This document shows positions 8,045 to 18,283 of a stretch of DNA of 41,418 nt, one piece after another. The translations under genes were made by a program, and so were the position numbers. The stretch's first letter is position 1, and every line of letters begins with the position of its first letter. The DNA comes from an uncultured Bacilli bacterium (GTDB lineage: Bacteria; Bacillota_I; Bacilli_A; RF39; UBA660), in the NCBI GenBank assembly GCA_947631045.1, contig CANRJV010000008.1, positions 1 through 41,418 of the forward strand. Reading direction: 5' to 3'. The notes under the pieces were generated by a model. The model made no database searches and was not told the DNA's origin. It was given only the letters and a program-made list of their open reading frames with translations.

Positions 8045-8333
8045 GCTTAGTAATGATATAGTAAGTAGCCATGTTTAGAAGTTATTATTTTATAATAATG
8101 TTGATGTGTGTGAAAGTTATATTTTTAGTAAATAAGTTATGTAAAAATAACCTTATCTGCGCTAAGTAAAAGCAATTGTTTTAAGAGAAAGAAAACTCTA
8201 AGAGATAAGCTATCCACACTAGATACTGATAATATTTAGTTAATATTTAAAATTATGGAGAGTAGTTTTAAATGATTGTGGAGAAGTTATTTTTAAACTA
8301 GAATAACTATTTTATCAGAATAGTTATTTTTTT
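8045..8333 (+). ncRNA. Candidate structured RNA 1, about 290 nt
   Basis: A unit bounded by a consensus promoter and an intrinsic terminator with no convincing gene inside. Helices I can trace: 8082-8088 with 8092-8098 (loop TTT); 8116-8119 plus 8122-8127 with 8142-8151 (two-base bulge); 8245-8252 with 8266-8273, nested in 8213-8218 with 8277-8282; and the end segments 8041-8048 with 8170-8177, the first bases of which may lie before the transcription start. AGTTATT at 8285-8291 can pair with AATAACT at 8302-8308, which would break the terminator, so a two-state switch is possible. It does not match the conserved cores I know for tmRNA, RNase P RNA, SRP RNA or common riboswitches. 6S RNA cannot be excluded. 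Confidence 0.55.
8302..8333 (+). terminator. Terminator of candidate RNA 1
   Basis: AATAACTATT (8302-8311) with AATAGTTATT (8319-8328), a 10-bp stem, loop of 7, T run to 8333. Confidence 0.85.
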
Positions 8334-8381: not shown

Positions 8382-8596
8382 GCAAGGAAGTCATTCCTAA
8401 TTATATTTTAAAATAATTATTATAATGAAAAATTATAGTATTATTTGATGGGTAGTTGAGGATAGAATAACATCGTCTATCGCGGATTGTAATAATCTTA
8501 AGTGTAGGTTACCTTGAATGGTTACTGATGAGATGTTGGAAGTGATGTCCAACCAATTACCTATTAGCCTACTAGTAATAGTAGGCTTTATTTTTT
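8382..8596 (+). ncRNA. Candidate structured RNA 2, riboswitch- or tRNA-like leader
   Basis: After a small 5' hairpin (AGGAA, loop GTCA, TTCCT at 8385-8398) comes a compact fold. A closing stem of 10 pairs, two of them G-U, joins 8449-8458 to 8554-8563. Two bases later is a hairpin 8461-8466 with 8476-8481 (GATAGA/TCTATC, 9-base loop). A small hairpin is at 8485-8488 with 8494-8497, and a hairpin 8535-8540 with 8548-8553 (GTTGGA/TCCAAC, 7-base loop) abuts the closing stem. CATC in the first loop can pair with GATG in the last. This recalls a tRNA-like or kissing-loop riboswitch fold. A terminator follows three bases after the closing stem. It sits immediately before the PBECR-like gene. The class was not recognised. 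Confidence 0.6.
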
Positions 8597-15897: not shown

Positions 15898-15922
15898 TTC
15901 CTTGTTTTAGGAAGTGATTCTT

Positions 15923-16777
15923 ATGGAAAGATATAAAGAAATTGAAAGAAGCATTATTAAAAAGTTTCGAAAAGATATCTGGCATAATTTTACCAAAGCC
16001 ATTAATGATTATGATTTAATTAAAGAAAATGATAAAATTATGGTTTGTATCAGTGGTGGTAAAGATTCTTTTTTGTTAGCTAAATGTATTCAAGAATTAC
16101 AAAGACATGGCAAAATAAAATTTGAAGCCCATTATGTTTCTATGAATCCTGGTTATAATGAAATTAATAAAAATAAAATTATCGAAAATGCTAAAATTCT
16201 AGATATTCCCTTAGAAATGTTTGAAAGTGATATTTTTGAAGTGGCCCGGAAACTTAATTATGATAATCCTTGTTATATGTGTGCCAGAATGAGGAGGGGA
16301 CACTTATATAGTAAAGCCCAAGAATTAGGTTGTAATAAAATTGCTTTAGGACATCATTTTGATGATGTTATTGAAACGACGCTTTTATCATTATTTTATG
16401 GAGCTGAGATTAAAACAATGATGCCCAAACTTCATAGTGATAACTTTGCTAATTTAGAACTTATCAGGCCTCTTTATTTAGTTAAAGAAAGCGCCATTAA
16501 AGCTTGGCGGGATTTTAATAATTTAGAATTTATTAATTGTGCTTGTCCTTTAACGGATAATTGTGTCATCAATACTGATAATGATGAAGAAATTGGAAGA
16601 AGACAAGCCATGAAAAATTTAATATATAAATTAAGAGGTGAAAGAAAAAATATTGATAATAATATTTTTACGGCTTTAAATAATATTAATATGAATTGTA
16701 TTTTAGGTTATAAAAAAGATGGTAATTATACTTCCTTTTTAGATGAGTATGAAGATACTTTTAAAAAGAATAATTAA
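15923..16777 (+). CDS. ttcA: tRNA 2-thiocytidine biosynthesis protein TtcA
   Basis: A 284-residue PP-loop ATPase that would thiolate cytidine 32 of certain tRNAs. The ATP-binding PP-loop is ISGGKDSFLL (about residues 44-53). CYMCARMRRG holds two cysteines and NCACPL the third, the set that binds the [4Fe-4S] cluster in TtcA. ALGHHFDDVIETTLL is the adenylation motif of the family. Length fits TtcA rather than TilS. GTG 15914 is in frame, but AGGAAGTG (15909-15916) places the start at ATG 15923. The enzyme needs iron-sulfur clusters and a sulfur donor, and the suf genes begin 1.5 kb downstream. Confidence 0.85.
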   Translation: MERYKEIERSIIKKFRKDIWHNFTKAINDYDLIKENDKIMVCISGGKDSFLLAKCIQELQRHGKIKFEAHYVSMNPGYNEINKNKIIENAKILDIPLEMFESDIFEVARKLNYDNPCYMCARMRRGHLYSKAQELGCNKIALGHHFDDVIETTLLSLFYGAEIKTMMPKLHSDNFANLELIRPLYLVKESAIKAWRDFNNLEFINCACPLTDNCVINTDNDEEIGRRQAMKNLIYKLRGERKNIDNNIFTALNNINMNCILGYKKDGNYTSFLDEYEDTFKKNN

Positions 16778-16799: not shown

Positions 16800-16830
16800 T
16801 TTGCGGTTTCAAATTGAAATCGCAAATTTT
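16800..16830 (+). terminator. Terminator of ttcA, CAAATTG-centred palindrome
   Basis: TTTGCGGTTTCAA (16800-16812) with TTGAAATCGCAAA (16814-16826), one G-T pair, then TTTT. The centre CAAATTG equals that of three palindromes in and before the next gene. Confidence 0.7.
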
Positions 16831-16867
16831 AAAATGATAAAAAATTGTTAAAATTTACTAAAAAGTC

Positions 16868-16896
16868 TTGTCAAAACAATAGTTCGGTGATATAGT
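16868..16896 (+). promoter_or_regulatory. Promoter of the ORF6N gene
   Basis: TTGTCA (16868-16873), spacer 17, TATAGT (16891-16896). Start expected near 16903, giving a leader of about 110 bases that contains the palindrome at 16960-16984. Confidence 0.7.
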
Positions 16897-16959
16897 TATC
16901 ATACAGCAAGGTAGTAAAGCTTTATATAGATAGAATAAAAAGAGGAATAAAAATAGTTT

Positions 16960-16984
16960 CTAAGGTTCCAAATTGGAACCTTAG
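16960..16984. repeat. Palindrome A in the leader of the ORF6N gene
   Basis: Arms CTAAGGTTCCAA (16960-16971) and TTGGAACCTTAG (16973-16984) around a single A. It would form a hairpin in the transcript or a two-fold binding site in DNA. It matches palindrome C inside the coding sequence over AGGTTCCAAATTGGAACCT. Confidence 0.85.
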
Positions 16985-17014
16985 AGAAAAAATAAAAGGA
17001 AGGGTTTTGGTAAT

Positions 17015-18283
17015 ATGAATAATGAAATTGAAAAAATTGTAAAAGAAAATTTAGTTTATGAGGTAAGAGGAAAAAGGGTAATGCTAGATAGTGATCTAGC
17101 CAAATTATATCAATGTAATAATGGTACAAAAGAATTGAACCAATTGGTAAGAAGACATATTGAAAAGTTTTCTAGTGACATGTATTTTCAGTTAGAAAAA
17201 GAGGAGTATTTAGAACTTCTAAGGTCACAAATTGTGACCTTAAAGGTTTCAAAAGGGCAACATGTTAAATACTTGCCATACGTGTTTTCTCGGGAAGGAA
17301 TCGAGATTTTAAATAATTTAATAAGGAATGAAAACAAGGAAAAAATTTATAAAAAAATATTAAATGATTTTCAAGATGCTGAAAATTTTGATTTAGTAGA
17401 AGTGCGCGCAAACCCGCATAAAATCGGGGATTTAATCTATGAAGTAAGAGGAAGGCAAGTGATGTTAGATAGTGATTTAGCTAAACTATATCAATGTAAA
17501 AATGGCACCAAAGATATTAATAAAGCTGTTAAAAGAAACATCGAAAGATTTCCAGAAAACTTTGTTTTTAAATTAACAAATGATGAAAATTTGAGGTTCC
17601 AAATTGGAACCTCAAATGAGAATAATGTTGGAGGTCGAAGATATTGTTCGTATGCTTTTACCGAACAGGGTGTAGCAATGTTAAGTGGAGTTTTAAAAAC
17701 TGAAGTGGCTGTAAAAGTAAGTATTGCGATAATGAATGCTTTTGTTTTAATGCGAAAATATATTTCTAGTAATTTAATGGAACAGCAATTGATAAATAAT
17801 CAAGTTATGAGAAATACAGAAGATATAAAGAAGTTACAAGAATCATTTAATAAGTTTGAAGAGAAAAAAGAGAATGTAAATGAGATATATTTTTACGGGA
17901 GAATATATGACGCTTATTCAAAGATAGTAGATATTTTAAAAGAAGGCAAAGAAGAAATAATAATTATAGATAGATATGCTGATAAAAGCATCTTAGATAT
18001 GATAAGAGATATAGATGTTAAAGTGACATTGATAGTAAAGAGAAATGGTTTGTTAAAAGAGATAGATATTGAAAAGTATAATAAACAATATCATAACTTA
18101 AAAATAAAATATGATGATACCTATCATGATCGTTATATAATAATTGATAGAAAGAAAGTCTATCATTTAGGATCATCCCTAAATCAAGCGGGAAGTAGAA
18201 CATTTAGTATTAATATTTTAGAGGAAGAAGAAGTAAAAGAAGCAATTTTTCATAAAGTAAAAAGAGATTTAACAAACAATTAA
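17015..18283 (+). CDS. Double ORF6N-domain protein with PLD-like C-terminal domain
   Basis: A 422-residue phage-type regulator. Residues about 9-105 and 139-240 are two copies of the ORF6N (KilA-N-like) domain. Each copy opens YEVRG(K/R)-VMLDSDLAKLYQC and ends in a YxPY-F or YCSYAFTEQGVAML segment. ORF6N domains occur in phage antirepressors and bind DNA. After a short coiled region (residues about 255-290) comes a third domain with YHDRYIIIDRKKVYHLGSSL, the histidine-containing half motif of phospholipase D-like folds, a known companion of ORF6N. Lys of the HxK motif is replaced by Arg (HDR), so catalysis is doubtful. Both N-terminal copies contain a DNA palindrome in the codons for L-R-(S/F)-Q-I. 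Its own promoter and lack of phage neighbours suggest a solitary acquired gene. Confidence 0.8.
   Translation: MNNEIEKIVKENLVYEVRGKRVMLDSDLAKLYQCNNGTKELNQLVRRHIEKFSSDMYFQLEKEEYLELLRSQIVTLKVSKGQHVKYLPYVFSREGIEILNNLIRNENKEKIYKKILNDFQDAENFDLVEVRANPHKIGDLIYEVRGRQVMLDSDLAKLYQCKNGTKDINKAVKRNIERFPENFVFKLTNDENLRFQIGTSNENNVGGRRYCSYAFTEQGVAMLSGVLKTEVAVKVSIAIMNAFVLMRKYISSNLMEQQLINNQVMRNTEDIKKLQESFNKFEEKKENVNEIYFYGRIYDAYSKIVDILKEGKEEIIIIDRYADKSILDMIRDIDVKVTLIVKRNGLLKEIDIEKYNKQYHNLKIKYDDTYHDRYIIIDRKKVYHLGSSLNQAGSRTFSINILEEEEVKEAIFHKVKRDLTNN
17221..17239. repeat. Palindrome B within ORF6N copy 1
   Basis: Arms AGGTCACAA (17221-17229) and TTGTGACCT (17231-17239) around a single A, encoding RSQIVT. Same centre CAAATTG as the other copies. 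Confidence 0.85.
17589..17617. repeat. Palindrome C within ORF6N copy 2
   Basis: Perfect 14-base arms (17589-17602 and 17604-17617, left arm ATTTGAGGTTCCAA) around a single A, inside coding sequence for LRFQIGTSN. Its core equals palindrome A of the leader. Confidence 0.9.

What the first reader, a model, noticed from the sequence alone, without database searches (positions are those of the whole stretch)
16800..17617. Four CAAATTG-centred palindromes before and inside a double ORF6N gene
Seen directly: palindromes at 16800-16826, 16960-16984, 17221-17239 and 17589-17617 share the centre CAAATTG. The leader copy and the second coding copy are identical over 19 bases (AGGTTCCAAATTGGAACCT). Both coding copies fall at the same place in the two ORF6N domains, in the codons for L-R-(S/F)-Q-I. 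From memory, R-(S/F)-Q-(F/I) is a recurrent motif of ORF6N proteins, so selection may act on DNA or RNA and not only on protein. Inference: the gene may carry sites for its own product, or hairpins that control its mRNA or let the domain be copied and spread. The first copy doubles as the ttcA terminator.
Basis: partly seen in the sequence, partly recalled or inferred. Interest (0 to 1): 0.72.

Follow-up and report, generated by a model that had tools for sequence, protein, structure and literature searches.

The report
Palindrome built into DNA-binding-protein genes
Genes for three families of bacterial DNA-binding proteins carry a near-perfect DNA palindrome in the same spot, kept symmetrical while its letters and even its reading frame change, which suggests that these genes contain a DNA site, probably one for their own product.

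Summary
The palindromes are real. Three of the four are perfect, and they are the only perfect odd dyads with arms of 11 or more in the window (shuffles give 0.08). Synonymous-codon shuffling does not explain them. About 87% of ORF6N genes, 80% of RhuM genes and 71% of long-form Bro-N genes hold a 25-33 bp palindrome in the DNA-binding domain, in at least five phyla and at GC 0.27-0.63. KilA-N and phage-type Bro-N genes lack it. It is read in different frames (ORF6N 0 and 1, Bro-N 1, RhuM 2). Its arms vary in every pair yet stay complementary (RhuM: 223 cells changed on both sides, 62 in shuffles; covariation score 0.83 against 0.25). G:T mismatches are no commoner than A:C, so pairing is conserved in DNA, not in RNA. 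The motif LR(S/F)Q is one reading of this DNA. Models place it in the wing of a winged helix; the ORF6N protein resembles TrmB-type regulators. Paralogues swap the recognition-helix-to-palindrome segment as one cassette. Extra copies collect upstream of the gene, some matching the copy inside it. Best explanation: a built-in cis site for the gene's own product. Binding is inferred, not shown.

The parts
15914..16777 (+). TtcA-like gene upstream (context only)
   Evidence: ORF; protein found in 57 of 58 family genomes, no sufC within the fetched flanks
16800..16826 (.). Upstream palindrome, imperfect (12 of 13 pairs); perfect in the C29 paralogue and in L012-L014
16868..16896 (+). Promoter-like element TTGTCA-17-TATAGT with TG before the second hexamer, also seen in several paralogues and relatives
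   Evidence: consensus match only
16959..16985 (.). Leader palindrome; cleanly absent from paralogues C11 and C33, present in C29; ortholog L011 differs by a paired change and a loop inversion
17015..18283 (+). Two ORF6N domains, coiled coil and a C-terminal PLD-like domain (422 aa)
17051..17311 (+). ORF6N domain 1 (PF10543)
17220..17242 (.). In-gene palindrome 1 (codons L-R-S-Q-I-V-T-L), 23 bp perfect
17165..17285 (+). Exchangeable segment of domain 1: identity to paralogue C33 falls from about 93% to about 50% here
   Evidence: 60-nt sliding windows, limits approximate
17432..17692 (+). ORF6N domain 2 (PF10543)
17589..17617 (.). In-gene palindrome 2 (N-L-R-F-Q-I-G-T-S-N), 29 bp perfect; encodes the low-confidence wing-tip loop of the model
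17524..17655 (+). Exchangeable segment of domain 2: identity to paralogue C29 falls from 100% upstream to about 50%, then recovers to about 90%
   Evidence: limits approximate
17702..17866 (+). Predicted long helix (coiled coil)
17882..18274 (+). PLD-like C-terminal domain (H-x-R..D..GSSLN), shared with some RhuM-family proteins
   Evidence: motif read

Best explanation
SHOWN: ORF6N, RhuM and long-form Bro-N genes carry a DNA palindrome (arms about 10-15 bp around a free centre of about 3 nt) in the segment that, where modelled, encodes the wing of their winged-helix DNA-binding domain. Complementarity is conserved, while arm sequence, encoded peptide and reading frame are not. The segment from the recognition helix to the palindrome is exchanged between paralogues as a cassette, and extra copies lie upstream of a minority of genes. 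INFERRED: the palindrome is a built-in cis site of the gene's own product. The protein, dimerised through its coiled coil like a TrmB-type regulator, would bind the in-gene dyad, together with a leader dyad where present (usually about 250-290 bp away), and act as an elongation roadblock or loop to hold its own expression down. With the site inside the DNA-binding-domain coding sequence, a mobile or shuffled gene always carries both domain and site. Complementarity of bases not read by the protein would be kept by a need for symmetry or cruciform extrusion, helped by template-switch correction between the arms.
For: Frame-independent conservation. In-gene palindromes of score 8 or more in 117/134 ORF6N, 70/87 RhuM and 37/52 Bro-N genes; none in 18 KilA-N loci, nor in phage-type Bro-N loci L176-L182. 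Codon-shuffle null: 50%, 47% and 39% of genes reach score 10, against 0.5%, 1.9% and 0.4% of permutations. Covariation. In the own genome, core-pattern palindromes occur only at ORF6N loci, apart from one non-palindromic match. Leader copies resemble their own gene's palindrome: 6.74 of 9 arm bases, against 5.82 +/- 0.22 for permuted pairing; L102 has two identical 33-bp copies. Helix-to-palindrome segments swap together. TrmBL2/TrmB fold match at E 2.5e-7. Palindromes are less perfect in domains without a tail (10.27 against 11.23 of 12, p = 4e-5). A promoter-like element lies between the upstream and leader palindromes.
Against: No binding data. Domains with nearly identical helix-turn-helix sequences can have quite different arms (L047 and L044: one HTH difference), which a sequence-read operator does not predict. 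Within one locus the inner arm bases are mixed. Only about 29% of ORF6N, 9% of RhuM and 8% of Bro-N genes with an in-gene palindrome have a strong upstream one. Loss of the in-gene copy is not generally offset upstream (ORF6N 4/13, RhuM 0/13, Bro-N 2/11). The permutation test of leader similarity does not correct for relatedness.
Confidence: 0.45

Rival explanations
1. The pairing itself is the signal: the palindrome acts as a cruciform in duplex DNA, or as a hairpin in single-stranded DNA during replication, conjugation or transformation, recognised by shape by the encoded winged-helix protein or by a host factor.
For: All arm positions covary, including those with no preferred base; pairing starts at position 2 around a loop of about 3 nt; non-coding copies occur in both loop orientations; G:T and A:C mismatches are about equal; many ORF6N and RhuM hits lie on plasmids and viral contigs; the best, marginal fold match of the RhuM model is the DNA-damage protein DdrC.
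Against: ORF6N arms keep preferred bases (A at 2, T at 6, G at 7), so sequence also matters; short palindromes extrude poorly in duplex DNA (established knowledge).
Confidence: 0.25
2. A mobile palindromic element of REP or Rickettsia-RPE kind that inserts at these genes and upstream of them, tolerated where the wing tip can accept any peptide.
For: Upstream arrays of discrete 29-33 bp palindromes (L033, L019); presence/absence of the leader copy between paralogues; a second in-frame copy in the N-terminus of the Segatella gene L123 and one over the start codon of L124.
Against: Not dispersed: in the own genome only at ORF6N loci; always the same place in the domain; absent from KilA-N; no mobilising enzyme identified; more perfect in genes with an intact tail.
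Confidence: 0.15
3. No function: once formed, the palindrome is kept symmetrical by template-switch correction of one arm from the other.
For: Concerted two-arm changes and loop inversions between close relatives (L011 against window, L015 against L016, L001 against L037).
Against: Does not explain conservation at one place across phyla and three families, the restriction to these genes, or the decay in tail-less copies.
Confidence: 0.1
4. An mRNA hairpin that regulates translation or decay.
For: The sense strand can form the stem; the finding suggested it.
Against: No G:U excess (30 G:T-type against 41 A:C-type mismatches); almost no one-sided G:U steps; no Rfam match; loop orientation free in non-coding copies.
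Confidence: 0.05

Closest known systems
Internal operators of regulator-controlled genes (lac O2 in lacZ, gal OI in galE; from memory)
   Same: A dyad inside a coding sequence, paired in some genes with a dyad near the promoter at a few hundred bp
   Different: Here the dyad lies inside the coding sequence of the DNA-binding domain itself, in most members of three families across phyla, with covarying arms and several reading frames
TrmB/TrmBL2 family regulators
   Same: Predicted winged helix + coiled coil + PLD-like domain (Foldseek E 2.5e-7)
   Different: Bacterial ORF6N, one or two winged helices; no in-gene palindrome is recalled for TrmB; not tested
Rickettsia palindromic elements (RPE; from memory)
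   Same: Palindromes read in frame in protein genes, peptide tolerated
   Different: RPEs are scattered over many unrelated genes; this one sits at one place in related DNA-binding domains
REP elements with RAYT transposases (from memory)
   Same: Palindromes clustered around one gene family
   Different: No genome-wide dispersal, no Y1 transposase; the palindrome is inside the gene
HsdS target-recognition-domain shuffling in type I restriction systems (from memory)
   Same: Specificity-bearing segments exchanged between otherwise near-identical paralogues
   Different: The exchanged segment also carries the palindrome; no recombinase identified

Membership tests
ORF6N domain (PF10543) | Profile match above the curated cut-off | tested here: met
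   168.5 bits against cut-off 27.8, two stretches
TrmB-type regulator (works like) | Winged helix + coiled coil + PLD-like domain | tested here: met
   AF2 pLDDT 82.4 and Foldseek top hits TrmBL2; by fold only
TrmB-type regulator (works like) | Binds palindromic DNA and regulates transcription | not testable with these tools
   needs gel shift and reporter
Intragenic operator | One fixed recognition sequence per regulator | tested here: not met
   near-identical HTH with different arms (L047/L044); inner arm bases mixed within a locus
Intragenic operator | Dyad symmetry, cognate copy near the promoter | tested here: inconclusive
   symmetry met; strong upstream copies in 34/117 ORF6N, 6/70 RhuM, 3/37 Bro-N genes; similar to the in-gene copy
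Structured RNA (cis-regulatory hairpin) | Base pairs kept through G:U intermediates | tested here: not met
   G:T 30 against A:C 41; 223 both-side against about 10 one-side changes
Structured RNA (cis-regulatory hairpin) | Match to an Rfam family | tested here: not met
   no match at the palindromes
REP/RPE mobile palindromes | Dispersed through the genome | tested here: not met
   only at ORF6N loci in the own genome
REP/RPE mobile palindromes | Insertion polymorphism between relatives | tested here: met
   leader copy present or absent between paralogues

The most novel reading that the evidence does not exclude
A previously undescribed class of frame-independent DNA element, built into the wing-coding segment of related winged-helix regulators: the gene carries its own site inside its DNA-binding-domain coding sequence, and domain and site are exchanged and spread together as one specificity cassette, with DNA base pairing itself under selection.
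Probability: 0.5. Interest if true: 0.92.

Novelty: categorically new. Interest (0 to 1): 0.85.

Why it matters
ORF6N, RhuM and Bro-N proteins are widespread on plasmids, in prophages and near defence loci, yet little is known of what they do; the text search found only 5 papers that mention ORF6N, and RhuM was proposed to be a toxin from gene neighbourhood alone (PMC3710099). The palindrome gives each of these genes a candidate binding site, so their function becomes directly testable. It would also be a rare case in which a protein motif used in annotation (LR(S/F)Q, LVxNCDR) is in fact the reading of a conserved DNA element, and it suggests how a mobile regulator could keep its site while changing specificity.

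Tried and rejected
Chance and codon bias: rejected by synonymous permutation and dinucleotide shuffles. RNA hairpin: rejected on mismatch types, both-side changes and loop orientation. Upstream copies as remnants of decayed ORF6N genes: no ORF6N similarity found in the L019 and L033 upstream arrays. Genome-wide repeat: not so in the own genome. Per-locus sequence specificity of the inner arm bases: not seen. Loss of the in-gene copy offset by an upstream copy: only in single cases (L019, L022, L202), not in general. Empty-site comparison at ttcA/sufC: no informative locus, since sufC is not within the fetched flanks of ttcA in relatives. The pattern AACTG-N3-CA-N5-TG-N3-CAGTT over 195 genomes gave mostly unrelated matches. 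A viral-contig search with the window protein alone found nothing; profiles worked. Sequence homology of ORF6N to RhuM is only suggestive (20-21 HTH columns, E 0.003-0.055); RhuM to Bro-N is better (E 1.8e-5), so 'one ancestral palindrome' is not claimed as shown.

Full report
OBSERVATION. The sequence confirms all four palindromes. Three are perfect odd dyads: 16959-16985, 17220-17242 and 17589-17617. The copy at 16800-16826 has one G:T pair. A window of this make-up yields 0.08 perfect odd dyads with arms of 11 or more per shuffle; it has three. With the protein held fixed, synonymous permutation reaches site 1 in 10 of 5000 trials and site 2 in none.

THE GENE. 17015-18283 encodes two ORF6N domains (PF10543) and a C-terminal domain with an HxR..D..GSSLN motif. 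A model of the second domain plus tail (pLDDT 82) shows a winged helix, a long helix and a PLD-like domain. Palindrome 2 encodes residues 57-66, inside a low-confidence loop (52-77) between the two wing strands. Foldseek puts TrmBL2 first (E 2.5e-7), then NucT and Zucchini. The C-terminal domain is shared with some RhuM-family proteins on plasmids.

GENERALITY. Among 132 distinct ORF6N domains from Bacillota loci, nearly all have a palindrome centred on the codon after the Q/K of L-R-x-(Q/K). Complementarity is only 55% at the first position from the centre and 76-95% at positions 2-13. ORF6N genes on plasmids of Treponema, Haliovirga, Segatella, Butyrivibrio, Bacteroides, Parabacteroides, Sulfuricurvum and Legionella have it too. 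In some members the same nucleotides are read one frame over, giving (L)VxNCD(Q/R). A pattern scan of 392 genomes led to Bro-N genes, and family searches to RhuM. RhuM reads it in frame 2, Bro-N in frame 1. In-gene palindromes of score 8 or more occur in 117/134 ORF6N, 70/87 RhuM and 37/52 Bro-N genes. KilA-N genes and phage-type Bro-N genes have none. These counts depend on sampling of MAGs, viral contigs and plasmids.

NUCLEOTIDE LEVEL. Score 10 or more is reached by 50%, 47% and 39% of viral-contig ORF6N, RhuM and Bro-N genes, but by 0.5%, 1.9% and 0.4% of their synonymous permutations. In 56 RhuM palindromes 90.6% of cells pair (60.6% shuffled), all 12 pairs show changes on both sides, and 223 cells changed on both sides (62 shuffled); sliding the partners by one column drops the score from 0.83 to at most 0.18. 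In ORF6N frame 0, 94.2% pair (65.3% shuffled). The centre of each row was chosen for best pairing, which raises the paired percentage; the shuffles keep the column make-up but not relatedness.

DNA, NOT RNA. Mismatches of G:T type number 30 and of A:C type 41 over the three families; an RNA helix would favour G:T. One-sided steps are rare. Non-coding copies occur in both loop orientations.

COPIES AND DYNAMICS. In the own genome the core pattern occurs only at ORF6N loci, apart from one match that is not a palindrome. Some loci have upstream arrays of discrete palindromes: about ten in L033, seven in L019. The window's leader palindrome is cleanly absent from paralogues C11 and C33. L102 has identical 33-bp leader and in-gene copies, L123 a second in-frame copy in its N-terminus, L124 one over its start codon. 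In 27 leader/in-gene pairs the median distance is 271 bp, and arm similarity exceeds permuted pairing (6.74 against 5.82 +/- 0.22). Close relatives show paired arm changes and loop inversions.

CASSETTES. The window gene and paralogue C29 are 100% identical over the first 390 nt, fall to about 50% between the domain-2 helix-turn-helix and its palindrome, and recover to 90% and more. Against C33 the fall is in domain 1, while domain 2 is 98-100% identical. L015 and L016 show the same in domain 2. Three domain-1 types and four domain-2 types assort over ten related genes. So the segment from recognition helix to palindrome behaves as one exchangeable unit.

MECHANISM. An autogenous cis site explains the confinement to DNA-binding-protein genes, the dyad, the co-exchange with the recognition helix, the leader copies and the regulator-like fold. 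It does not by itself explain why bases with no preference still pair, or why near-identical helices have different arms. A shape-read cruciform or hairpin explains the pairing; template-switch correction may add to it. None of these has been tested by experiment. Most genes lack a strong leader copy, so looping cannot be general.

PLACE AMONG KNOWN THINGS. It fails a tested defining feature of a classical operator (fixed sequence), of a structured RNA (G:U tolerance; no Rfam match) and of REP/RPE repeats (dispersal). No description was found in the open-access full text searched; subscription papers and preprints are not held, so earlier description cannot be excluded. RhuM had been proposed as a toxin from neighbourhood (PMC3710099).

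VERDICT. The function is inferred, at about 0.45 for an own-product site.

Noticed in passing
window 8145-8239 and 8451-8561: Rfam matches to PGK RNA (RF03040, 79.4 bits) and skipping-rope RNA (RF02924, 42.9 bits) close together.
   Followed up: no
L156:1727 and L157:1785 (genome G368): Palindromes identical in core to that genome's ORF6N palindrome (GGTCGCAAATTGCGACC) in two near-identical intergenic places beside genes that do not look like ORF6N.
   Followed up: partly
L046, 114 bp upstream of the ORF6N start: A RhuM-type palindrome (CAGTTGTTGCAAAATTTGCAACAACTG) lies upstream of an ORF6N gene whose own palindrome is of another type.
   Followed up: no
L121:532-4694: The Treponema plasmid ORF6N gene sits between a class I SAM-dependent DNA methyltransferase gene and a restriction subunit S gene.
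   Followed up: no
L168, L169, L170 (genomes G169, G279, G044): Tandem or fragmentary ORF6N domains lie close together, suggesting repeated duplication and decay.
   Followed up: partly
G000 contigs C3, C5, C45, C57; C1 and C34; C23: The window's own genome also has four Bro-N matches, two RhuM matches and a KilA-N gene; the one Bro-N locus examined (L194) showed no strong palindrome.
   Followed up: partly
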